From: Burkholderiales bacterium
Lineage (GTDB): Bacteria; Pseudomonadota; Gammaproteobacteria; Burkholderiales; Burkholderiaceae_C
Assembly: GCA_017307855.1 (NCBI GenBank)
Contig: JAFKGD010000003.1
Coordinates: 276,707 to 340,706, forward strand
Length of the DNA stretch: 64,000 nt
Reading direction: 5' to 3'
A program made the position numbers and the translations under genes. Below, in pieces: positions 5,038-61,325 of this stretch; position 1 is the stretch's first letter, and the number at the start of each line of letters is the position of its first letter. The notes below the pieces were generated by a model. The model was not told the DNA's origin and searched no databases. It saw only the letters and a list, made by a program, of their open reading frames with translations.

Positions 5038-5061
5038 AAGCCCCGCCTGCCGGGGCTTTTT
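5038..5061 (+). terminator. Rho-independent terminator of phoX
   Basis: Perfect 8-base stem AAGCCCCG / CGGGGCTT with a 5-base loop, followed by TTT, starting 14 bases after the phoX stop codon. Confidence 0.85.
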
Positions 5062-5077
5062 CGTATCCGGACATTCG

Positions 5078-5095
5078 AAGACAGACAGATGACAA
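5078..5095 (-). promoter_or_regulatory. Candidate reverse-oriented Pho box before the lipid-remodelling block
   Basis: On the minus strand the site reads TTGTCAT - CTGT - CTGTCTT, two heptamers each 6/7 to the PhoB half-site with exact 11-base spacing. The orientation is opposite to the genes it precedes. It covers an alternative ATG at 5089, which argues that translation of the next gene begins at 5113. Confidence 0.45.
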
Positions 5096-5112
5096 CCGAC
5101 GGAGCACAGACC

Positions 5113-5949
5113 ATGAACGAACTGCCGACGCCGACCTTCCCGCTCTCGCCCTCCATGCTGCCCAGGGGGTCGCTTCATCGCAGCGATGCGCAACCTGGCC
5201 CGTCGCATGCGGCTGCAGCGGGGGGCATCAGCGTCGCATGGGCCCGCCACCAGGACGAAGTCCGCGAGGCGCAGCGCCTGAGGTTCGATGTCTTCGCGGG
5301 CGAGATGGGCGCACGCCTGACCACGCCGATCGAAGGCCACGACATCGACCTGTTCGACGACTTCTGCGAGCACCTGCTGGTGCGCGATGCGGCCAGTGGC
5401 CAGGTGGTGGGTACCTACCGCGTGCTCACGCCTGCACAGGCGCGCCGTGTGGGCAGCACCTACAGCGATACCGAATTCGACCTCACGCGCCTGCGTTCGC
5501 TGCGCGAGCGCATGGTGGAGCTGGGCCGCAGCTGCGTGCATGCCGAGCACCGCCAGGGCGGCGTGATCCTGGCGCTGTGGGGCGCGCTGGCCGAGTTCAT
5601 GGTGCGCAACAAGCTCGACACCATGATCGGTTGCGCCAGCATTCCGATGCTCAGTGGCGGCGTGGTCAGCGGCGACGTGGCGGCCAGCATCTGGCGCCAG
5701 CTGTCGGCCACGCATCTCGCGCCGATCGAGTACCAGGTGCGCCCGCGCCTGCCGCTGCCGGTGGAGCAGCTCGACAGCCACCTGCAGGTGGAGCCTCCCG
5801 CGCTGATCAAGGGTTACCTGCGGCTGGGCGCCAGGGTGCTGGGTGCGCCGGCGTGGGATCCGGACTTCAACACCGCCGACCTGCCCATGCTCATGCGCAT
5901 CGCCGACCTGCCGCCGCGCTACCGCCGCCATTTCCTGGGGGCCGCGTGA
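5113..5949 (+). CDS. OlsB-like GNAT N-acyltransferase (ornithine-lipid type)
   Basis: A 278-residue acyltransferase of the hemolysin/OlsB GNAT family. Seen here: the segment from VREAQRLRFDVFAGEMGAR, a GTYRVL strand, the VELGRSCVHAEHRQGGVI acyl-donor core near residues 135-155, and GCASIPMLSGG. OlsB transfers a 3-hydroxyacyl chain from ACP to ornithine to make lyso-ornithine lipid. Coupling to a PlcP-like phospholipase and an Agt-like glycosyltransferase makes a phosphorus-free lipid role likely. ATG 5113 has GGAG eight bases upstream. No OlsA partner is in view, so another amino-acid acceptor or unlinked second step is possible. The stop overlaps the next start (GTGA). Confidence 0.7.
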   Translation: MNELPTPTFPLSPSMLPRGSLHRSDAQPGPSHAAAAGGISVAWARHQDEVREAQRLRFDVFAGEMGARLTTPIEGHDIDLFDDFCEHLLVRDAASGQVVGTYRVLTPAQARRVGSTYSDTEFDLTRLRSLRERMVELGRSCVHAEHRQGGVILALWGALAEFMVRNKLDTMIGCASIPMLSGGVVSGDVAASIWRQLSATHLAPIEYQVRPRLPLPVEQLDSHLQVEPPALIKGYLRLGARVLGAPAWDPDFNTADLPMLMRIADLPPRYRRHFLGAA

Positions 5950-43857: not shown

Positions 43858-45414
43858 CTATGGCCCCAGGTGCGCTAGGTCCTCAAGGCGCGACGTCAAC
43901 ATCGACACGTCTGAGAACCGATATGCCTTCAGGAATGGCGGGGACAGACCGACGACACGGTAGCGGCCGGGCGGAAGAAGAATTCGCGGCACTAATTGCA
44001 GATCCAGGGCGGCCTCGTTGTTCGGGTCCATGCGTATAAACAGCATGAAGTCAGAGGACGCTCTGTCGCCAACCCATAAGTTCCACGCAGGCAATCCCTG
44101 TCGAGTCTTAATGCTTCGATGTATCTGAAGCGACAGCAATCGACCGTCAGGCAGGGCGAGAACGCTGGTGTACGAGTTCCATCTTCCGTCGAGGCCGACG
44201 CTCGCCAAGTCTGCATGAATACGCGTCGCTAGGTCGATGCGCACCCGCTCCATGCCAGCCAAGATCCTCGCTTCCTCTTGGACGTGCTCAGGCCAGTACC
44301 CGATCATCGTGTAAGCATTGAAAAGACTGCCGAATCTATGGCTGTAGCCGGCCGCAGTGAATCGGCCGAGCGAGTCGATTAATCTGCCGGAAAGGTAGCC
44401 GTGCTGCCGCAGCAACGCACGAAGGTTGTCGAGCAAGAGTTCATCGGGAGGACTGCGTGCCAGATCAACCAAGGCTGCTTGTGTACGTTCGAAGAGCTGC
44501 CGCGACACCAGTGGCTCGAACGCGTCAGCCTTGCGAAACTGCAGCTCCGGTGGACTCTCCGTTCGCCGCTTGCCGAGCCTGCTCGAAATTCGGTTGTAGA
44601 GGTTGACCCCGACGTACTTCTCGTTGACCAGCATGCCTCTGATCATTGCTCTCGACCATGGAAGTCCACGATCCCTCGGCACAGCCTCAGCGTTCAGTAA
44701 ATCTGTGATCGCTTGAGGGCCCAAGCGGTCATCTGCGCACAACGAGAAGATGCGTTGTACAAGCTCAACTTCATCGGCGGGTCCAGGTACAAGAATGGTG
44801 CGGTCGGACTTGAAGCTCTTGTGCTGCCCTTTCGCCATCAGGCCTTGGGGCTCCCCGTCCCTGTCCACTAGCATTCGCCGGAGGCCCAATCCAGGTGGCC
44901 CGCCTTGGCGAAATCCCCGCTCAGTCATCTTTCTTTGGCCCGTGAAGATCTTCTCCGACAGCTCGCGGCTGTACTCGCCGGCCATCGCGCGCTTAATACT
45001 TTTGAAAATGGCACTAACGGTCGAGCCGTCCTCGACGAATGGCTCGGCGCAGTAGATGACCTTCAAGCCGGCACGGCGGCAGAGAAATTCATAGAAGGCA
45101 CTCTCATCGGCATCTTGGAAGCGTCCCCATCTGCTGATGTCGTAAATCAGTACGGCACTGAAAGGAAAATCTCCGGCTTCAACATCTCGAAGCAACCGCT
45201 GCAGCGAATCGCGACCCCTGAGATGCAGCCCACTCTTCCCCTCATCGGCATACGTCCGAACGACAGAGTATCCGTGCCGTTCTGCATAGTCTCGGATGGC
45301 GGCCTGCTGGTTGATGCCCGAGTAGTCTTGCATCTCTGTGGACATGCGGATGTACTCGGCTGCTGCCAACTTGCCTTCGATGAGTACCTGCCGTCGCTGC
45401 CGCTTGGTAACCAT
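43858..45414 (-). CDS. Large serine recombinase
   Basis: A 518-residue site-specific recombinase. The N-terminal resolvase domain has EYIRMSTEMQDYSGINQQ with nucleophile Ser25, ADEGKSGLHLRGRDSLQRL and LIYDISRWGRF with catalytic Arg. The Recombinase domain follows (GPPGLGLRRML, PWSRAMIRGMLVNEKYVGV). The ~150-residue C-terminus is not a typical zinc-ribbon/coiled-coil and is unassigned. Such enzymes integrate or excise phages and elements, or act on inverted/deleted segments. It lies 2.7 kb from tRNA-Val and is probably the recombinase of a decayed element. ATG 45414 has no obvious competitor. Confidence 0.88.
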   Translation of the reverse strand: MVTKRQRRQVLIEGKLAAAEYIRMSTEMQDYSGINQQAAIRDYAERHGYSVVRTYADEGKSGLHLRGRDSLQRLLRDVEAGDFPFSAVLIYDISRWGRFQDADESAFYEFLCRRAGLKVIYCAEPFVEDGSTVSAIFKSIKRAMAGEYSRELSEKIFTGQRKMTERGFRQGGPPGLGLRRMLVDRDGEPQGLMAKGQHKSFKSDRTILVPGPADEVELVQRIFSLCADDRLGPQAITDLLNAEAVPRDRGLPWSRAMIRGMLVNEKYVGVNLYNRISSRLGKRRTESPPELQFRKADAFEPLVSRQLFERTQAALVDLARSPPDELLLDNLRALLRQHGYLSGRLIDSLGRFTAAGYSHRFGSLFNAYTMIGYWPEHVQEEARILAGMERVRIDLATRIHADLASVGLDGRWNSYTSVLALPDGRLLSLQIHRSIKTRQGLPAWNLWVGDRASSDFMLFIRMDPNNEAALDLQLVPRILLPPGRYRVVGLSPPFLKAYRFSDVSMLTSRLEDLAHLGP

Positions 45415-53535: not shown

Positions 53536-54852
53536 TCAGGCCCGCACCACCGGCATATCCTCCCACCGCGTCGTGTAGCACGGCGTCCGGCGGTCCGCCC
53601 GCATCGTCCACACACGGTTCTTGCCGGCGCCGCCCGTGCTGCCGCTGTGCAGCGTGCCCTTGCCGTACTTCTCGTTGACCTTGTCCATGGCGGCCATGAG
53701 CGCGCTGCGGTCGCGCGCTGGTGAGCTGCTGCCGTCTTCCTCGGGCTCCAGATCCAGCTCGTTCTGGTGCTGGGTGCCGGGCTGCAGGTCGAGCAGCATG
53801 ACGCCGGCCTTGACCAGGTCGTAGCCCGCTTCGTAGATGGCGCGCATGCCCGCCTGGGCGGCGTGGATGAGGGCCGTGGTGTCGTCGGTGGGCCGGCGCA
53901 GGGGCTGCACGGTGCTGCGGGCCCACTGAGGGCCGTGGCGGTGGGGGCTGGTGTGGGCGAAGACCATGACGCGGCCGGCCAGGCTGCCCTGGCGGCGCAG
54001 CTTCTCGGCCGCGCGGGTGGCGAATTCGCTCACCGCCTCCACCAGCGGCGGCAGGGTGGCGATGGTGTGGCCAAAGCTGCGGGTGCAGGCCACCTGCTGC
54101 TGGGGCGGCGGCGCGTCGTCCAAACTGATGCAGGAGGTACCCTGCAGCTCGCGCACGGTGCGCTCCATGACGACGCCGAACTGGGCACGGATGGCGGCGG
54201 CGTTGGCCCGGGCCAGGTCGAGCGCGGTATGCACCTGGCCCGCGCGCAGCTTGGCGCCCTGGCGGCGGCCCACGCCCCATACGTCGGTGACGGGGGTGGC
54301 CTGCAGGATGGCATCGCGCGCCGCCGCATCCAGCGCGCCCAGGTGGCACACGCGGGCCAGCTCGGCAGGGTAGCTGCCGGGTTTGCGCTCGGCATCCTTG
54401 GCGACGTGGTTGGCCAGCTTGGCGAGCGTCTTGGTGGGGGCGATGCCGATGCAGGTGGGGATGCCGATCCAGCGATGGATGCGGTCGCGCACCTTGTGGC
54501 TGCGCGCCACCAGGTCGCCGCGCACGCCGGCCAGGTCGATGAAGCATTCGTCGATGCTGTAGATCTCTTGCGCGGGGCCCAGGCCGGCGGCCAGGGTCAT
54601 GAAGCGATCGCTCATGTCGCCGTAGAGCACGAAGTTGGCCGAGAGGACGACGACGCCGGCCTCTTCCTCCAGGTGGCGCCACTGGAACCACGGGTCGGCC
54701 ATGCCGATGCCCAGGGCCTTGGCCTCGTTGCTGCGGGCGATGGCGCAGCCGTCGTTGTTGGAGAGCACGACGACGGGGCGGCCTTCCAGGCTGGGGCGGA
54801 AGACGCGCTCGCAGCTCACGTAGAAGTTGTTGCCGTCGACGAGGGCGAGCAT
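53536..54852 (-). CDS. umuC: Y-family DNA polymerase UmuC
   Basis: A 438-residue error-prone polymerase (Pol V catalytic subunit type). Metal residues lie in [18 protein letters not shown] (Asp6) and [10 protein letters not shown] (Asp-Glu). HhH-like [15 protein letters not shown] and the little-finger domain [20 protein letters not shown] follow. The C-terminal segment [18 protein letters not shown] is the UmuC-specific DUF4113 motif. It lies eight bases after umuD. Function: translesion synthesis in the SOS response, with cleaved UmuD dimer. An SOS box precedes the operon. Confidence 0.95.
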
Positions 54853-54860
54853 GGGTGTGC

Positions 54861-55358
54861 CTACTTGATGAAGCGGGTGATGGCGCTGGTGACCACGCCC
54901 ACCACCTCGATGGTTTGCCCGTCGCGCGGCACGATGTCGGGGAAGGTGGGGTTGGCCGGGCGCAGGCGCGTGCGGCCGGCGCGCTGGTGCAGGTACTTCA
55001 CGGTGAATTCGCCATCGAGCGTGGCGACGACGATGTGACCATGGCGCGGCTTGAGCGCCCGGTTGACCACCAGCGTGTCGCCGTCATGGATGCCGGCGTC
55101 GCGCATCGAATCGCCCGCCACGCGAAGCAGGAAGGTGGCCTGCGGGTGGGTGATGAGCACCTGGTTGAGATCGATGCGCTTGTCGAGGAAATCGTCGGCG
55201 GGCGAGGTGAAGCCGGCCCGCACGTGCATGCCGGCCACGGGCAGCAGCAGCGGTGGCAACGGGGCCGGCAACGGTGCGCCGGGCACGAGCTGGACCAAGC
55301 CGTAGGTGTGGGCACCGGCGGCGAAGGCGATGAGCGGTGACGGGGGCATGGCAGGCAC
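54861..55358 (-). CDS. umuD: UmuD-like S24 peptidase subunit
   Basis: A 165-residue S24-family protein. The self-cleavage site is the Ala-Gly bond in [20 protein letters not shown]. The catalytic Ser is in [16 protein letters not shown] and the Lys in [10 protein letters not shown]. RecA-stimulated cleavage gives UmuD', the partner of UmuC. The N-terminal ~40 residues are longer and more hydrophobic-proline-rich than in E. coli UmuD; an alternative Met at residue 4 is possible. In an operon with the 119-residue gene upstream and umuC downstream. Confidence 0.93.
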
Positions 55359-56532: not shown

Positions 56533-56560
56533 ATGTCGGCTATCGGCCAATAGCGGACAT
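56533..56560 (+). repeat. Palindromic repeat R1 (type U)
   Basis: ATGTCGGCTAT - CGGCCA - ATAGCGGACAT, one mismatched pair. The CGGCCA centre marks the half-type found upstream of start codons. Ends four bases before the ATG at 56564. Confidence 0.85.
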
Positions 56561-56563
56561 TCG

Positions 56564-56803
56564 ATGAACGACGAAAACATCCGGAAAGCTGGCGTCGAAC
56601 TTAAAGCATTTGCCGACGATCTCCAGTCGAAGTTCGACGTTGCAAGTGAGAAGCATGAGCGCACGATGCGCAGATTCCGCTTCTTCTCCCATGACCGCGC
56701 CAATCTCTGGCGCATGCCTCGTTGGCTTTGGATTCCTTTAGTAGGAAGCTTGGTGCTGATACTTCTTGCGGCGCTGGCGGCTGTGGCGCGAGGTCCGGCG
56801 TGA
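56564..56803 (+). CDS. Array gene A: small protein with C-terminal membrane anchor
   Basis: A 79-residue protein: a charged helix (VELKAFADDLQSKFDVASEK), a basic stretch and a C-terminal hydrophobic span (WLWIPLVGSLVLILLAALAA). Starts four bases after repeat R1, and its TGA stop shares a base with repeat R2. The tight fit to both repeats is typical for this array. Function unknown. Confidence 0.65.
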   Translation: MNDENIRKAGVELKAFADDLQSKFDVASEKHERTMRRFRFFSHDRANLWRMPRWLWIPLVGSLVLILLAALAAVARGPA

Positions 56804-56830
56804 TGTCCGCTTCGGGCCCGAAGCTGACAT
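56803..56830 (+). repeat. Palindromic repeat R2 (type D)
   Basis: ATGTCCGCTTCGGG / CCCGAAGCTGACAT, 14-base arms with one mismatch. The GGGCCC centre marks the half-type found after stop codons. Shared by the convergent genes A and B. Confidence 0.85.
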
Positions 56831-56849
56831 GCAAGACGAACGGAAGGGC

Positions 56850-57086
56850 CTATGCGGTGAGTGAATTCGTAGTAGAAGAGCGCTTAGCCAAGCGGTGCCA
56901 CAAAAGCCCGCCGAGGAATCCGGCAGCCATGCACAGATATGTGAACCAAATGGTGTTGAGAGGGGTATAGGTGTCCACCGCCCAAGCCAGTAGCGTGGCG
57001 GTACATAGCGGAACACTGACGCGCCACCATCGCACGCAAATGCTGAGAGCAATGAGCGCCAAACTAAGGTAGAGAAGTACGTCCAT
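56850..57086 (-). CDS. Array gene B: small membrane protein
   Basis: A 78-residue protein with two or three spans (VLLYLSLALIALSICV, VPLCTATLLAWAV, IWFTYLCMAAGFLGGLLW) and a short polar tail. ATG 57086 is six bases from the type U half of R3. Codon use is clearly less GC-rich than in the core genome. No family recognised. Confidence 0.65.
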   Translation of the reverse strand: MDVLLYLSLALIALSICVRWWRVSVPLCTATLLAWAVDTYTPLNTIWFTYLCMAAGFLGGLLWHRLAKRSSTTNSLTA

Positions 57087-57090
57087 CAAA

Positions 57091-57152
57091 TGCCGCTTCT
57101 AACCGATAGGCGTCATCGTAGCGGGTCTGCTTCGGGCCCGAAGCGGACTGTC
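57091..57152 (+). repeat. Palindromic repeat R3 (U + D)
   Basis: U half GCCGCTTCTAACCGATAG, spacer GCGTCATCGTAGCG, D half GGTCTGCTTCGGGCCCGAAG. U faces the start of gene B, D faces the stop of gene C, both on the minus strand. Confidence 0.8.
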
Positions 57153-57210
57153 ACTGGCAAGTTGCGACATGGCCCACACCTGATCAGTTGGTCAGCGTGT
57201 TTTATCGACC

Positions 57211-57459
57211 CTAACCACCGAATGGGCCTTTGCCGGGAGAGGCAAGCTCTTGTCGCGATCGTACGAAGAAGAGCCACCCAATGATTCCCAGCGTTCCGCC
57301 GACGTAGCCGAGCCACTCTGGCCATCCTGGGACAAGAAAAAGCCCACCCCCACATATCAACCCAGCCGATGCCAACACCTTCGAGATCCTACTGGAGCGA
57401 CGAGAGGCAGCGAACTGCTCTTCATTCGGTGGCGGGTTCCATGAATTCATTAGCGTCAC
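57211..57459 (-). CDS. Array gene C: small membrane protein
   Basis: An 82-residue protein: basic N-terminus, then two spans (ISKVLASAGLICGGGLFLVP and WLGYVGGTLGIIGWLFFV) and a polar end. GTG 57459 has GAGGAG seven bases upstream; ATG 57450 is an alternative. Lies between repeats R3 and R4. No family recognised. Confidence 0.6.
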   Translation of the reverse strand: MTLMNSWNPPPNEEQFAASRRSSRISKVLASAGLICGGGLFLVPGWPEWLGYVGGTLGIIGWLFFVRSRQELASPGKGPFGG

Positions 57460-57500
57460 AGGTTTACTCCTCGATCGCGCGGCAAGACCGCATTGGGAGC

Positions 57501-57560
57501 GTCCGCTTCTGGTCGATAGCCGCAATCGTAGCCGGGTCTGACTCGGGCCCGCAGCGGACG
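57501..57560 (+). repeat. Palindromic repeat R4 (U + D)
   Basis: U half GTCCGCTTCTGGTCGATAG, spacer, D half GGTCTGACTCGGGCCCGCAG then CGGAC. U is on the start side of gene C, D touches the TAA stop of gene D. Confidence 0.85.
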
Positions 57561-57827
57561 TTAGATAAGCAGTAGAACACCTGCCCCAAGCGACAGCATG
57601 CCGAAGACGGCGAGCACAAGTGCCATCAATTGGGCAAGCGATGCCCCTTGGATAAGCCAGCGTGTGCGCGCCATGTCTTCGAGGGCCGGTGGTAGTTCGG
57701 CAGCTCCCGGCCCGTGAAGGGCTTCTGCGACTTGGCGGCTGGTGGGTCGCTTCACGGAAAGGTTGCGAACCGCATCAATTCCAAGGCCAAAGCAGATGAC
57801 GCCGAAAACGATTAGTGCCCACTCCAT
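57561..57827 (-). CDS. Array gene D: small membrane protein
   Basis: An 88-residue protein with N- and C-terminal spans (WALIVFGVICFGLGIDAV and LAQLMALVLAVFGMLSLGAG) around a polar middle (RQVAEALHGPGAAELPPALE). ATG 57827 is preferred because GGGGAGG precedes it; ATG 57839 would lie on repeat R5. The TAA stop abuts R4. No family recognised. Confidence 0.65.
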   Translation of the reverse strand: MEWALIVFGVICFGLGIDAVRNLSVKRPTSRQVAEALHGPGAAELPPALEDMARTRWLIQGASLAQLMALVLAVFGMLSLGAGVLLLI

Positions 57828-57837
57828 TCGCCTCCCC

Positions 57838-57936
57838 ATGTCCGCTTCTGGCCGATAGCCATCATCGTAGCCGGGTCTGCTTTGGGCCCGAAGCTGACCT
57901 CGGCTAGCATGGCGGCTATCGGCCAGAAGCGGACAT
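57838..57936. repeat. Palindromic repeat R5 (U-D-U, 99 bases)
   Basis: The element between divergent genes D and E. Outer arms TGTCCGCTTCTGGCCGATAG and its reverse complement are perfect over more than 20 bases; the centre is a D palindrome around GGGCCC. The whole element is one long imperfect dyad able to form a cruciform. Confidence 0.9.
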
Positions 57937-57947
57937 TGAGCAATGCA

Positions 57948-58358
57948 ATGATGCGTTGGATTGAACTTCTACGAGCTCGCATCATGGGCGAACGTGCCGC
58001 GCCATTTCCCTTCTTTGTTCCTCTCGCGAAGCGACCTTTGACGGGCGACGAACGCGAGGCAGTAAGGTATCTTCTCGCCGAGCAGGCAGATTTCCTTAAA
58101 GGTCAGGTAGAGCAGCTAGAGGTCGTTGGGCGTTGCGGTTGCCGCGTGGATTGCCCGACCATCTTCTTTCGAGAATACGTCCAAGGCGACCAGGAGCAAG
58201 AGCTTTCTAGTCTTCAGGGACTGGACAGTGCTGGCGGGCTTGTCGGAGCCATACTGTTTCAGAAGCAGGGCCTACTTTCGCAGTTAGACATCTTCTCTAT
58301 TGATGGCCATGTACCGTGGTCGGTTCCCACTGCGGCTAGCTTTGAACCGTTGCGCTGA
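57948..58358 (+). CDS. Array gene E: hypothetical Cys-containing protein
   Basis: A 136-residue soluble protein. Features: PLTGDEREAVRYLLAEQADF, a Cys cluster VVGRCGCRVDCPTIFF, then LVGAILFQKQGLLSQLDIFS and WSVPTAASFEPLR. This resembles a widespread family of small bacterial proteins with a CGC-CP motif and an LxxLDIxSxDG strand near the end; that is a recollection, not a database result. Starts 12 bases after R5. Confidence 0.65.
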   Translation: MMRWIELLRARIMGERAAPFPFFVPLAKRPLTGDEREAVRYLLAEQADFLKGQVEQLEVVGRCGCRVDCPTIFFREYVQGDQEQELSSLQGLDSAGGLVGAILFQKQGLLSQLDIFSIDGHVPWSVPTAASFEPLR

Positions 58359-58364
58359 TCTAGG

Positions 58365-58391
58365 ATGTCATCTATCGGCCAGAAGCGGACA
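58365..58391 (+). repeat. Palindromic repeat R6 (type U only)
   Basis: ATGTCATCTATCGGCCAG then AAGCGGACA. Only the U half is present; the D half expected after gene E is missing, the one exception in the array. Confidence 0.8.
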
Positions 58392-58422
58392 ATCGAGTCG
58401 TCGCGGCCATGAGGGTAGGGAA

Positions 58423-58680
58423 ATGCTGTTTGCTCTGAAATTGCTGATGCTGACGGTGGTGATTGGCGGCATTGCTTACGCCGCCGTCTTTATCTTTCCT
58501 CGCAAGATGCGCCTCTTGAGACGCATCGGGCTCGACAAGACCAACAGCGATGTTCTGGCGCTGGCCAAGCGCGGAGACGAAGAAGCCCAAGCATTGGTTC
58601 GGCAATCCAAACGCCTGCTGTGGGTTGTGCTGCCCACGGCCTTCCTGCTTTCGGTCGTGCACTCGTTAAGCCGCATGTAG
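58423..58680 (+). CDS. Array gene F: small membrane protein
   Basis: An 85-residue protein with an N-terminal span (ALKLLMLTVVIGGIAYAAVF), a charged middle with a TPR/SEL1-like phrase (NSDVLALAKRGDEEAQALVR) and a C-terminal span. AGGGAA precedes the ATG. Lies between R6 and R7. No family recognised. Confidence 0.65.
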   Translation: MLFALKLLMLTVVIGGIAYAAVFIFPRKMRLLRRIGLDKTNSDVLALAKRGDEEAQALVRQSKRLLWVVLPTAFLLSVVHSLSRM

Positions 58681-58695
58681 GTGATGCCGCCCCGG

Positions 58696-58756
58696 ATGTC
58701 TGCTTTGGGCCCAAAGCGGCCCCGGCTACGATGCGGCTTCGACAGAAAGCAGACAT
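58696..58756 (-). repeat. Palindromic repeat R7 (D + U, inverted orientation)
   Basis: D half ATGTCTGCTTTGGGCCCAAA, spacer with CGGCTACGATG, U half ending AAAGCAGACAT. The whole element is the reverse complement of R3/R4/R9, matching the plus orientation of genes F and G. Confidence 0.85.
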
Positions 58757-58769
58757 CGGGATCAGGAAC

Positions 58770-59168
58770 GTGGATACGCCAATCGAGACCCATGGAACGG
58801 TGCCTAGCCTGCGCGGTTTAACGTGCGGTGGCTTGTTCTCCCAAGGCGCAATCCTCGGCAATGTGCTGATTCAGGATCACATCCTCTTCATCAAGGCGAG
58901 CGACGTCTGGCACAGACTGGTTATAGACAATGGCGTAGTTTTCTGGCGGCAGCAGACCGTAGAGCCTGCGTCGTGGTCGATCCCAGAAGAAGGGTTCCAC
59001 TACCCAGTGCGTGATGTCGGTTCTGCGCGAGGCCTGCTTGGTCTGCAGTTCGAACTTCTGACGCAGACGCGCGAAAGATCCACGACCTCGGTCGCCTTCC
59101 GGTTCACCAATGGCCGCTGCATCAGGTTCAGCGAGTGTGACGACAAGACTACCCTGCAGATTGTCTAG
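58770..59168 (+). CDS. Array gene G: hypothetical beta-rich protein
   Basis: A 132-residue soluble protein, mostly predicted strands (LGNVLIQDHILFIKASDVWH, LVIDNGVVFWRQQTVEPASW, TTSVAFRFTNGRCIRFSECD). GTG 58770 has CAGGAA immediately upstream and lies 13 bases after R7. No family recognised. Gene G and gene H converge on repeat R8. Confidence 0.6.
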   Translation: MDTPIETHGTVPSLRGLTCGGLFSQGAILGNVLIQDHILFIKASDVWHRLVIDNGVVFWRQQTVEPASWSIPEEGFHYPVRDVGSARGLLGLQFELLTQTRERSTTSVAFRFTNGRCIRFSECDDKTTLQIV

Positions 59169-59183
59169 AAACCGCCGCGTGCG

Positions 59184-59211
59184 ATGTCTGCTATGGGCCC
59201 TTAGCGGACAT
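59184..59211 (+). repeat. Palindromic repeat R8 (type D)
   Basis: ATGTCTGCTATGGGCCCTTA then GCGGACAT, 12-14 base arms. Shared by convergent genes G and H; the TAA stop of gene H lies inside it. Confidence 0.85.
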
Positions 59212-59479
59212 TTCTAATCCACTCGTCCGCCTCTATGCCGAAATCCTCTGCGGCAGCTGCAAAAGCACTGGCAATGGTCTCATGCCAGGTGTCAGTCACG
59301 TACTTGCGGTCCAAGGACGAGTAGATAAGGAGGTAGTTCGCGTTCCCATCATCAGTAATCTCGATGCGGAAATCTGTCTCGAGTGAGTTAGGTGTGCCTT
59401 CATCGGCCACGGACCATCCGCCATTCGGATGCGTAGCGATAAGCACTTTGCGACACGGGATGACTGCCTGAACTTGCAT
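59201..59479 (-). CDS. Array gene H: hypothetical protein
   Basis: A 92-residue soluble protein: VQAVIPCRKVLIATHPNGGW, SLETDFRIEITDDGNANYLL, a helix HETIASAFAAAAEDFGIEAD. An alternating strand pattern with a C-terminal helix; no family recognised. ATG 59479 is 16 bases from R9. Its last four codons and stop are part of repeat R8, so the repeat encodes the C-terminus. Confidence 0.65.
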   Translation of the reverse strand: MQVQAVIPCRKVLIATHPNGGWSVADEGTPNSLETDFRIEITDDGNANYLLIYSSLDRKYVTDTWHETIASAFAAAAEDFGIEADEWIRNVR

Positions 59480-59494
59480 GTGCTTGGAACTCTC

Positions 59495-59558
59495 AATGTC
59501 CGCTTCTGGCCGATAGGCGTCATCGTAGCTCGGCCTGCTTCGCGCCCAAGAAGACAGT
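59495..59558 (+). repeat. Palindromic repeat R9 (U + D)
   Basis: U half ATGTCCGCTTCTGGCCGATA, spacer GGCGTCATCGTAGCTC, diverged D half GGCCTGCTTCGCGCCCAAGA then AGACAG. U faces the start of gene H, D faces the stop of gene I. Confidence 0.8.
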
Positions 59559-59577
59559 AACCGGCGCCAACGTCCCA

Positions 59578-60090
59578 CTAGGACTTGAACTTGGCCGTGC
59601 GCACCTTCGGCAGCAGCGCTGTCTCGGCGTCTTGCACTGATCCGGCCCCTTCGACAGTGATGATGGCGACATGCCCCACCTTGCCGATAACTGCGTACTG
59701 CAAGAGAAACCCTGGGCCATTGCCTTCGCGGGTGATGACCGGCAGCTGTGCGAGCTTGTCTCCCGACGGAAGTAGTTCGTCCGAGAACGGGCGAAGCACC
59801 GCGACGTACTTTGCAGCGGCCTTTTCGAACGTATCACGCGCAAAGGCAAGTGCGTTGCCTTGCACCTCTTGCATCTGGTCGGCTCGTGGAACGCCTTGCA
59901 GGATGTGCACGGTGATCAATGCAGCAGAGCCGTTTAAGTTTGTGTAAACGGCTGGCGAGCGCCCCTCCTTGTATGCATAACCATCGAATGCTTCAATGCT
60001 GAATGGCCCAAACGACCATTGGTCTGCAGCAGCTACGGGTGAGGCGCCCACCGCGAAAGCGGCAGCTAATGTTGAAAGTAGTCGCTTCAA
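59578..60090 (-). CDS. Array gene I: secreted protein
   Basis: A 170-residue protein with a Sec signal peptide (LLSTLAAAFAVGASPVAAAD, cleavage near residue 22). The mature part has strands SFGPFSIEAFDGYAYKEGRS, ALITVHILQGVPRADQMQEV and QYAVIGKVGHVAIITVEGAG. No family recognised; general resemblance to periplasmic proteins that probe lipid or peptide stress is not strong enough to name. TTG start at 60090 lies four bases from R10, as with other array genes. Confidence 0.65.
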   Translation of the reverse strand: MKRLLSTLAAAFAVGASPVAAADQWSFGPFSIEAFDGYAYKEGRSPAVYTNLNGSAALITVHILQGVPRADQMQEVQGNALAFARDTFEKAAAKYVAVLRPFSDELLPSGDKLAQLPVITREGNGPGFLLQYAVIGKVGHVAIITVEGAGSVQDAETALLPKVRTAKFKS

Positions 60091-60094
60091 GGGG

Positions 60095-60122
60095 ATGTCC
60101 GCTTCTGGCCGATCGCTGACAT
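60095..60122 (+). repeat. Palindromic repeat R10 (type U)
   Basis: ATGTCCGCTTCTGGCCGATC then GCTGACAT. Last repeat of the array, on the start side of gene I. Confidence 0.85.
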
Positions 60123-60662: not shown

Positions 60663-61325
60663 TCAGAACAGTTGACGCTCCAGCGGCTCGTCGCGCGGGG
60701 CCGCGGCCATGCGATCGGCCGGGAACTGGCGAACCATGCTCCACGCTTCTTGCACGCTGCAATCGAGCCAGCGGTCTTCGTCGTGGCGCGGCAGGATGAC
60801 GACCATGCGCTTTTCGTCCTGCGGCTTGTGGAAGCGCTTCATGAGGGCGTGGTCGTCGGCGTTGACCGTGAGCATGGTGAAGCTGAGTTCTTCCTTGCCG
60901 GTGTCTTTATCGAGCCAGCTGTCCCACAGGCCGGCGATCGCATAGGGTGACCAGTCGGCCATGCCGATGCGCCAGGGCACGTGCGCGCCGGTTTCGTAGT
61001 TGGGCTCGATGATCCAGTGCACGGGCACAAGGCAGCGCCGGCCCTTGGCCCAGGCATCGCGGAAGCTGGGCTTTTCACGCACCGTCTCGCTACGCGCGTT
61101 GTAGGTCTTGCGGCCCATGGCCAGCTCGCGCGCCCAGCGCGGCACCAGGCCGAAGCGGCCCACCTGCGCCTCGCGCTCGTGCGCGTACTGGTCGGGCTTG
61201 CGGCGGATGAAGGGGGAGAGGTAGGCGGGGAAGGTGTCGAGCGGCAGCTTGCCGTCTGGCAGGGAGACGCCGAAGTGCTTCAGCAGTGCGTCCTGGTCGG
61301 TGAAGGGGCGGTAGTTGGAGCACAT
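60663..61325 (-). CDS. SRAP domain protein (YedK/HMCES-like)
   Basis: A 220-residue SRAP (SOS response-associated peptidase) protein. Catalytic Cys2 follows the initiator Met (MCSNYRPFT). Further motifs: FGLVPRWARE, YNARSETVREKPSFRDAW, RCLVPVHWIIE and the TVNADDHALMKRFHKPQDEK stretch with the active-site His region. SRAP proteins form a covalent thiazolidine link with abasic sites in single-stranded DNA, shielding them. The neighbourhood with umuDC and ligD gives a damage-tolerance theme. Confidence 0.93.
   Translation of the reverse strand: MCSNYRPFTDQDALLKHFGVSLPDGKLPLDTFPAYLSPFIRRKPDQYAHEREAQVGRFGLVPRWARELAMGRKTYNARSETVREKPSFRDAWAKGRRCLVPVHWIIEPNYETGAHVPWRIGMADWSPYAIAGLWDSWLDKDTGKEELSFTMLTVNADDHALMKRFHKPQDEKRMVVILPRHDEDRWLDCSVQEAWSMVRQFPADRMAAAPRDEPLERQLF

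What the first reader, a model, noticed from the sequence alone, without database searches (positions are those of the whole stretch)
56533..60122. Array of nine orphan genes, each bounded by a two-type palindrome that follows gene orientation
Ten repeats separate nine small genes (A+, B-, C-, D-, E+, F+, G+, H-, I-). Two half-types exist: U (TGTCCGCTTCTGGCCGATAG) and D (core GCTTCGGGCCCGAAGC). For every gene the U half lies 4-32 bases upstream of the start codon. For eight of nine the D half lies at or near the stop codon, sometimes overlapping it. This holds on either strand: convergent genes share one D (R2, R8), tandem genes are separated by U+D units, and the divergent pair D/E has a U-D-U element. 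The repeat unit therefore turns with the gene, as if each gene plus its halves is one mobile or recombinable module. Encoded products are mostly membrane, secreted or orphan proteins with lower GC than the core. I know of no named system with this rule.
Basis: seen in the sequence. Interest (0 to 1): 0.92.

Follow-up and report, generated by a model that had tools for sequence, protein, structure and literature searches.

The report
Palindrome-bounded mobile gene cassettes outside integrons
A bacterial chromosome carries a row of small unknown genes, each fenced by 28-base palindromes; similar rows in other bacteria share genes whose matching stretch ends at those fences, which suggests a little-known, integron-like way of shuffling genes.

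Summary
Ten repeat elements, built from 28-bp palindromes with two centre types (U and D), separate nine small genes in 3.6 kb. U lies at the start of eight of nine genes and D at the stop of eight of nine. Two smaller arrays in the same genome put U at the start of five of five genes. The rule is not universal: in Lysobacter arrays D more often faces the start and U the stop.

The repeats behave as recombination boundaries. In Lysobacter the same modules occur in different species at non-orthologous places, and similarity stops in the palindromes. One gene abuts a U centre in one genome and a D centre in another. For the window's own genes no shared module was found.

A minimal tyrosine recombinase (206 aa aligned, catalytic domain only, not IntI) lies beside one array in this genome. 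In repeat-rich genomes of the Lysobacter family it lies within 150 bp of a palindrome at 7 of 8 loci examined, against 1 of 20 for glmS; but 10 of 20 such genomes lack it.

Best reading: an integron-like cassette system with 28-bp palindromic sites, probably served by this recombinase. Exchange is inferred from comparison, the enzyme from proximity. IntI and attC-box tests fail. My paper searches found no description.

The parts
56533..56560 (-). R1: U palindrome, left end of the array, 3 bp before gene A
   Evidence: single-strand DNA fold z -3.1
56564..56803 (+). gene A, 79 aa, one hydrophobic stretch by eye, no family match
56803..56830 (.). R2: D palindrome, spacer GGGCCC, shared by convergent genes A and B, overlaps A's stop by one base
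   Evidence: fold z -4.2
56850..57089 (-). gene B, 79 aa (start TTG 57089 or ATG 57086)
57089..57150 (.). R3: weak U (57089-57116, + strand, 13 of 20) plus D (57123-57150)
57211..57450 (-). gene C, 79 aa if it starts at the ATG at 57450
57499..57561 (.). R4: U (57499-57526, + strand) plus D (57534-57561)
57561..57839 (-). gene D, 92 aa; a 55% relative over 47 aa in another genome of the family (L101), with no palindrome in that 3-kb locus
57838..57936 (.). R5: U (57838-57865) - D (57873-57900) - inverted U (57909-57936) between divergent genes D and E; folds as one long hairpin
   Evidence: fold -45.2 kcal/mol, z -10.1
57948..58358 (+). gene E, 136 aa
58365..58392 (-). R6: U only, between tandem genes E and F (no D)
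58423..58680 (+). gene F, 85 aa
58696..58756 (.). R7: D (58696-58723) plus a deviant palindrome with centre TCGACAGA (58729-58756) before gene G
58770..59168 (+). gene G, 132 aa, GTG start
59184..59211 (.). R8: D palindrome shared by convergent genes G and H, overlaps H's stop
59201..59479 (-). gene H, 92 aa
59496..59559 (.). R9: U (59496-59523, + strand) plus degenerate D (about 59532-59559, by eye)
59578..60090 (-). gene I, 170 aa, TTG start, signal-peptide-like start by eye
60095..60122 (+). R10: U palindrome, right end of the array

Best explanation
The array is a row of mobile gene cassettes. Each cassette is a small gene carrying half a palindrome at either end. The 28-bp palindromes (read as 11-bp arms around a 6-bp spacer; U spacer TGGCCG, D spacer GGGCCC here and mostly CGACCC in Lysobacter) are core sites for site-specific recombination, so cassettes are gained, lost and re-joined by exchanges within the palindromes. 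The most likely enzyme is a minimal tyrosine recombinase (206 aa aligned, catalytic domain only) whose gene in this genome lies next to the C15 array and would act in trans on the other two. Because the D spacer of this genome is itself a palindrome, the site has no polarity and a cassette can go in either way round, which would explain the mixed gene directions; the non-palindromic D spacer of Lysobacter goes with one-way arrays. SHOWN by sequence comparison: the repeats; in Lysobacter, modules shared between genomes with edges in the palindromes; the closeness of the recombinase gene to the sites. INFERRED: that the window's own genes move, that this enzyme cuts these sites, where it cuts, and the spacer-polarity effect.
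For: Module S1: 380 of 395 positions identical between the palindromes in two Lysobacter genomes, but 80 of 157 and 73 of 152 in the 140 bp outside; similarity ends in U on one side and in the D centre on the other. Module S3: 519 of 552 identical inside, 81 of 158 and 81 of 157 outside; the same gene abuts a U centre in one genome and a D centre in the other. Of 86 alignment ends among 20 Lysobacter stretches, 8 have a palindrome within 60 bp in both partners; random mean 0.25, maximum 3 in 1000 draws. S1 and S2 lie in the array after glmS in G101, but in G100 on contig C1, while G100's glmS (C5) has no palindrome in the 17.5 kb downstream. Recombinase: in this genome a U lies 28 bp after its last aligned residue. 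Of 30 loci of the Lysobacter family, 7 have a palindrome (14 or more of 20) on both sides within 150 bp and 5 more on one side; one base shuffle of 103,938 bases gave 1 hit at 14 and none at 15 or more. In repeat-rich genomes 7 of 8 examined recombinase loci have one within 150 bp, against 1 of 20 glmS loci, p = 5e-5. It is present in 10 of 20 repeat-rich against 27 of 277 other genomes, p = 2e-5. Residues R, K, HxxR, H, Y seen by eye in alignment A1 (the set is recalled). Spacer: at threshold 14, adjacent U sites face the same way in 63 of 66 pairs in Lysobacter and 3 of 8 in this genome, p = 2e-4; at 13, 68 of 71 and 6 of 11, p = 8e-4.
Against: Ten of 20 repeat-rich genomes, including G100 and G101 that gave module S1, have no recombinase match at E<=1e-25. 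The recombinase family is far wider than the repeats: 82 of 399 genomes of the window's family and 397 plasmid records; the five plasmid copies read have no palindrome above 13 of 20 within 200 bp, and 3 of 29 same-family loci have one of 15 or more within 150 bp. Palindrome-flanked copies (13 of 67 rows, labelled by hand) are clustered on the tree, 8 changes against 12.1 in shuffles, but are not one clade. RecA-mediated exchange between repeats would also put edges at the repeats. No shared module was found for the window's genes; gene D's one relative (L101) has no palindrome nearby. S1's right linker is 26 of 31 identical, just above the 95% bound of random linker pairs, so that edge is not sharply set. 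The outside identities of about 50% come from end-to-end alignment and had no control of their own. The polarity test sets one genome against three related ones, and C15's left end holds a D-like palindrome with a non-palindromic centre (14 of 20).
Confidence: 0.6

Rival explanations
1. The palindromes are a REP- or MITE-like dispersed repeat family spread by some transposase, and modules are exchanged by ordinary homologous (RecA) recombination between repeats; the recombinase is one more passenger gene.
For: Of the 63 scan loci (up to 8 kb each) 19 hold a single palindrome of 15 or more and 3 none, among them Pseudomonas and Massilia loci; seven same-family sites read hold 1-3 palindromes, not arrays like the window's. 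GTAG, the REP tag (PMC3733652, passages), is in 4 of 4 U-D linkers read in this genome. Half of the repeat-rich genomes lack the recombinase.
Against: In this genome the strong matches lie at three loci, all gene arrays; only weak ones lie elsewhere (C2, C7, C11, window 44705). GTAG is in 3 of 50 Lysobacter linkers. A 28-bp repeat is short for efficient homologous recombination (general knowledge). A passenger would not be expected at palindromes in 7 of 8 repeat-rich loci on several tree branches.
Confidence: 0.2
2. The modules are real site-specific cassettes, but another enzyme (host XerC/XerD or an unrecognised recombinase) moves them, as reported for dif modules of Acinetobacter plasmids.
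For: Site size and 6-bp spacer resemble pdif sites (PMC13141974, passages); proteins that look like XerC and XerD are in the genome (by eye); repeat-rich genomes without the minimal recombinase still carry arrays.
Against: The ten repeats differ from a recalled dif consensus at 12-15 of its 24 fixed positions. The minimal recombinase gene is found at arrays; where xerC and xerD lie relative to arrays was not surveyed.
Confidence: 0.13
3. U and D are expression signals: U a 5' leader element and D a bidirectional terminator, put beside each gene by selection rather than by recombination.
For: Position at starts and stops in this genome; stable hairpins for several copies.
Against: Polarity is more often reversed in Lysobacter, D at the start and U at the stop (29 of 59 modules); module edges coincide with palindromes; the window's D copies are not followed by a run of T (by eye).
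Confidence: 0.05

Closest known systems
Integrons and CALINs (IntI with attC-bounded gene cassettes)
   Same: Arrays of small, mostly unknown genes separated by imperfect palindromes; arrays with and without a nearby tyrosine recombinase; modules shared between species (in Lysobacter).
   Different: Recombinase is not IntI (integrase_gron 17 bits, cut-off 265) and lacks the core-binding domain; no GTTRRRY box in 9 of 10 repeats; several arrays per genome; mixed gene direction here.
dif (pdif) modules of Acinetobacter plasmids
   Same: Modules bounded by 28-bp sites with a 6-bp spacer; [quoted passage not shown]
   Different: Chromosomal here; near-symmetric arms instead of distinct XerC and XerD halves; sequence unlike a recalled dif consensus; modules do not alternate C and D.
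REP/BIME elements with RAYT transposases
   Same: Short palindromes, often paired, some near stop codons; GTAG in this genome's linkers.
   Different: Here they bound gene modules at three loci; GTAG in only 3 of 50 Lysobacter linkers; RAYT not looked for.
FimB/FimE-type DNA invertases
   Same: Stand-alone tyrosine recombinases of about 200 aa; the PRK09871 invertase model matches over 40-191 (25 bits, cut-off 222).
   Different: Here beside multi-gene arrays rather than one invertible switch; below the family's cut-off.

Membership tests
Integron / CALIN | IntI-type integrase by its curated model | tested here: not met
   The array-side recombinase scores 17 bits against integrase_gron cut-off 265. 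Four other tyrosine recombinases of the genome found with this query look like XerC, XerD and two P4-type integrases, by eye only; the genome was not searched with an IntI model.
Integron / CALIN | attC core boxes RYYYAAC / GTTRRRY (recalled) | tested here: not met
   No exact GTTRRRY on either strand in 9 of 10 repeats; one match in R4.
Integron / CALIN | Array of mobile single-gene cassettes bounded by palindromic sites | tested here: met
   In Lysobacter: shared modules with edges at palindromes. Not shown for the window's own genes.
dif modules | 28-bp site with XerC and XerD halves around a 6-bp spacer | tested here: not met
   Size fits, sequence does not: 12-15 mismatches of 24 fixed positions to a recalled dif consensus (the script's label says 25).
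dif modules | Recombination by XerC/XerD | not testable with these tools
   Needs an experiment.
REP elements | GTAG (or CGTC) tag at one end of the palindrome | tested here: inconclusive
   GTAG in 4 of 4 U-D linkers read in this genome, 3 of 50 in Lysobacter.
REP elements | RAYT (Y1) transposase in the genome | not tested
Tyrosine recombinase superfamily | Phage_integrase domain with R-K-HxxR-H-Y residues (set recalled) | tested here: met
   PF00589 66.3 bits; catalytic regions of XerH, XerC-like and XerD chains matched; residues seen by eye in alignment A1.
TnpR (Tn4401) subgroup of simple tyrosine recombinases | N-terminal DUF3701 domain (PMC8138268, passage) | tested here: not met
   Only PF00589 matched at E<=0.01.

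The most novel reading that the evidence does not exclude
A chromosomal cassette system independent of integrons: a catalytic-domain-only tyrosine recombinase shuffles single genes between 28-bp palindromic sites found mainly in gamma- and betaproteobacteria, and the symmetry of the 6-bp spacer decides whether an array is one-way (Lysobacter) or two-way (this genome).
Probability: 0.4. Interest if true: 0.9.

Novelty: new variant of a known kind. Interest (0 to 1): 0.8.

Why it matters
Integrons are the textbook way in which bacteria collect single genes as cassettes. A second system with other sites and a smaller enzyme would explain a share of the orphan genes of Lysobacter and other bacteria, give a new source of cassette genes to survey, and give a natural test of how spacer symmetry sets the direction of recombination.

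Tried and rejected
Classical integron: rejected as membership (IntI model and attC box not met). Rfam: one match up to E 1, at E 0.18 and far below its gathering score. Plasmid DNA like the array or like an 88-nt composite element: no match. AlphaFold2 of the recombinase with four sequences: mean pLDDT 47, unusable, so no fold search was made. Relatives of the window's array DNA in 399 genomes of the family: 20 genomes besides its own have one short match each; by query position 7 fall in repeats and 13 in gene segments (F 7, A 3, D 3). At protein level (E<=1e-3) only the gene D match in L101 was borne out. A broad 28-bp pattern in 399 genomes returned many copies of one similar sequence that looks like part of a conserved gene, and was not used for counting. 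An inverted repeat just before many recombinase genes looks regulatory and was set aside. Literature: the sequence searches found nothing or 47 papers, of which the 20 listed look by title like work on other subjects that happens to hold such short strings; the peptide search found none; topic searches listed integron, dif-module, REP and other papers. I saw listings with starts of abstracts, and passages of PMC8138268, PMC5082802, PMC3733652 and PMC13141974; none of what I saw describes these repeats. The library holds no preprints and few subscription papers.
Full report
CHECK OF THE OBSERVATION. The window holds ten repeat elements between 56533 and 60122. They reduce to one 28-bp palindrome, ATGTCCGCTT-8-AAGCGGACAT, in two centre types: U (mostly CTGGCCGA, asymmetric) and D (CGGGCCCG, TGGGCCCG, TGGGCCCA or TGGGCCCT, with the symmetric core GGGCCC). 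At 13 of 20 arm matches or better, 15 of the 17 palindromes of the window lie in this 3.6-kb stretch. Array GC is 57.4% against 66.1% for the window. U lies at the start of 8 of 9 genes; G has a deviant palindrome instead. D lies at the stop of 8 of 9, counting one degenerate copy read by eye; E has none. The genome (4.99 Mb, 17 contigs) has two more arrays. C15 runs U-gene-D-gene-(weak U)-gene-U; C6 runs U-gene-(weak U)D-gene-U. In both the genes point inward and U is at the start of 5 of 5 (one start read by eye). Weaker single matches lie on C2, C7 and C11. No other genome of the genus is held, so direct strain comparison was impossible.

DISTRIBUTION. An exact U pattern finds 63 stretches in the named genome collection; by record title 46 of 63 are Lysobacter (26), Pseudoxanthomonas (8), Pseudomonas (8) or Massilia (4). 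Of the 63, 22 hold four or more palindromes of 15 or better in up to 8 kb, 19 hold one and 3 none at that threshold. Three Lysobacter genomes hold 54, 22 and 34 U-like matches at up to 3 mismatches, many in runs on one strand. There a frequent element is U, a linker of about 31 bp, then D. Of 100 relatives of the window's genome, 7 (its own included) have a match at up to 2 mismatches.

THE RULE IS LOCAL. In 20 Lysobacter stretches, 59 modules had a gene call by codon score; modules without one were left out. Read along the gene: D at the start and U at the stop 29, U at both ends in the same direction 11, the window-like arrangement 6, others 13. So the polarity seen in the window is more often reversed in Lysobacter, which argues against U and D being dedicated start and stop signals. 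The rule holds for the one module read in viral contig L241 and fails in the Acidovorax MAG L057.

MODULES MOVE (LYSOBACTER). All-against-all comparison found modules shared between species with dissimilar flanks. S1: 380 of 395 identical inside; outside 80 of 157 and 73 of 152, from end-to-end alignment without a control of its own; left linker 17 of 31, within the range of random linker pairs (mean 0.61); right linker 26 of 31, slightly above their 95% bound of 0.81. On the right the similarity breaks in the D centre. S3: 519 of 552 inside, 81 of 158 and 81 of 157 outside; at one end the gene abuts a U centre in G100 and a D centre in G102, after a shared left arm. Three weaker pairs are 82.5%, 79.3% and 71.7% alike; their edges are less sharp. 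Over 44 alignments, many of them outside arrays, 8 of 86 ends lie within 60 bp of a palindrome in both partners; random mean 0.25, maximum 3 in 1000. S1 and S2 lie in the same order in both genomes with 3.8 kb between them in G100 and 0.55 kb in G101, and no match of 200 bp or more was listed between those intervals.

AN ALLELIC SITE. In G101 (Lysobacter soli by record title) S1 and S2 belong to an array whose first palindrome lies 71 bp after the glmS stop codon. I fetched the DNA after glmS in the 20 repeat-rich genomes of the Lysobacter family: at 15 of 20, twelve palindromes in G101, three in G620 about 4 kb downstream, none in the 17.5 kb fetched in the other 18. In G100 S1 and S2 are on contig C1 (about 1.397-1.402 Mb) while its glmS is on C5, so the same modules sit at non-orthologous places.

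THE CANDIDATE ENZYME. In the window's genome the C15 array ends beside a stand-alone tyrosine recombinase gene, with a U 28 bp beyond its last aligned residue. The protein has only the catalytic domain: PF00589; Xer models and chains align from about their residue 110-190 onward, apart from chain 5dcf and the short PRK09871 model. It is not IntI (17 bits, cut-off 265) and shows no DUF3701. Among 297 genomes of the Lysobacter family, 37 have it at E<=1e-25. Of the 20 with at least 8 U-like hits (threshold chosen after seeing the table), 10 have it, against 27 of 277, p = 2e-5. Of 30 recombinase loci returned, 7 have a palindrome of 14 or more on both sides within 150 bp and 5 on one side; one base shuffle gave 1 hit at 14 and none at 15 or more in 103,938 bases. 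For the 10 repeat-rich genomes with the gene, 8 loci were returned; 7 of 8 have a palindrome of 15 or more within 150 bp, against 1 of 20 glmS loci, p = 5e-5. These counts treat genomes as independent, which related species are not; on the tree the flanked copies fall on several branches. Against the link: the family is far wider (82 of 399 genomes of the window's family; 397 plasmid records; 3 phage records), the five plasmid copies read have no such sites, 3 of 29 same-family loci have one, and half of the repeat-rich genomes lack the gene. As with CALINs, arrays may outlive their enzyme, but this is an inference.

SPACER SYMMETRY. In Lysobacter 73 of 83 D copies have the spacer CGACCC and none GGGCCC; adjacent U sites face the same way in 63 of 66 pairs. 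In the window's genome the D spacer is GGGCCC, its own reverse complement, and 3 of 8 adjacent U pairs face the same way at the same threshold of 14 (p = 2e-4); at 13 it is 68 of 71 against 6 of 11, at 15 it is 56 of 58 against 2 of 7. One search had used unequal thresholds (p = 0.001). One exception: a D-like copy at C15's left end has a non-palindromic centre. For tyrosine recombinases the spacer sets polarity (general knowledge), so a palindromic spacer predicts insertion either way round. This is one genome against three related ones: a lead, not a proof. Of six window pieces folded as single-stranded DNA, three reach z of -3 or lower (R1 -3.1, R2 -4.2, R5 -10.1) and three do not (R4 -1.4, R9 -0.4, R10 -0.6); two Lysobacter elements have z -4.6 and -4.7.

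WHAT THE MODULES CARRY. The nine window genes pass no family cut-off. Thirty-four Lysobacter module proteins, picked by me for coding score, match 20 Pfam families, each in one member: chromate transporter, D-Ala ligase, HxlR, LuxR-type regulator, AbiGi antitoxin, several DUFs. Such mixed content is like that of integron cassettes (general knowledge).

VERDICT. Repeat-bounded modules that exchange at 28-bp palindromes are well supported in Lysobacter and likely here (about 0.85). The minimal tyrosine recombinase is the best candidate enzyme (about 0.6 for the whole model). The system works like an integron or a dif-module system but fails membership tests of both.

Noticed in passing
G000:C15:141301-141918 (L118): The putative recombinase lies outside the window; the other matches in this genome are 30% identical or less, or short fragments.
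   Followed up: yes
L131, L133, L209, L211, L214-L217, L236, upstream of the recombinase gene: Several members of the recombinase family have an inverted repeat (such as TGAACTCC...GGAGTTCA) ending right before the start codon, perhaps a translation or auto-regulation element.
   Followed up: no
L243, L244, L247-L250: The DNA after glmS is a variable hotspot: a shared downstream block begins from about 0.3 kb (L244) to about 16 kb (L248, L250) after glmS in different genomes.
   Followed up: partly
window 53536-55358 and 60663-61325: The array lies between genes that look like umuC, umuD and a YedK/HMCES-type gene (named by eye), which are linked to DNA damage (recalled).
   Followed up: no
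window 44705-44732: A lone D-like palindrome (16 of 20) far from the array.
   Followed up: no
L241 (IMGVR_UViG_3300002854_000001) 5060-5482: A contig filed as viral carries one U-gene-D module with the same polarity and symmetric D spacer as the window.
   Followed up: partly
L191:1127-2714: Tandem duplication of about 795 bp, 98% identical, in Lysobacter sp. MMG2.
   Followed up: no
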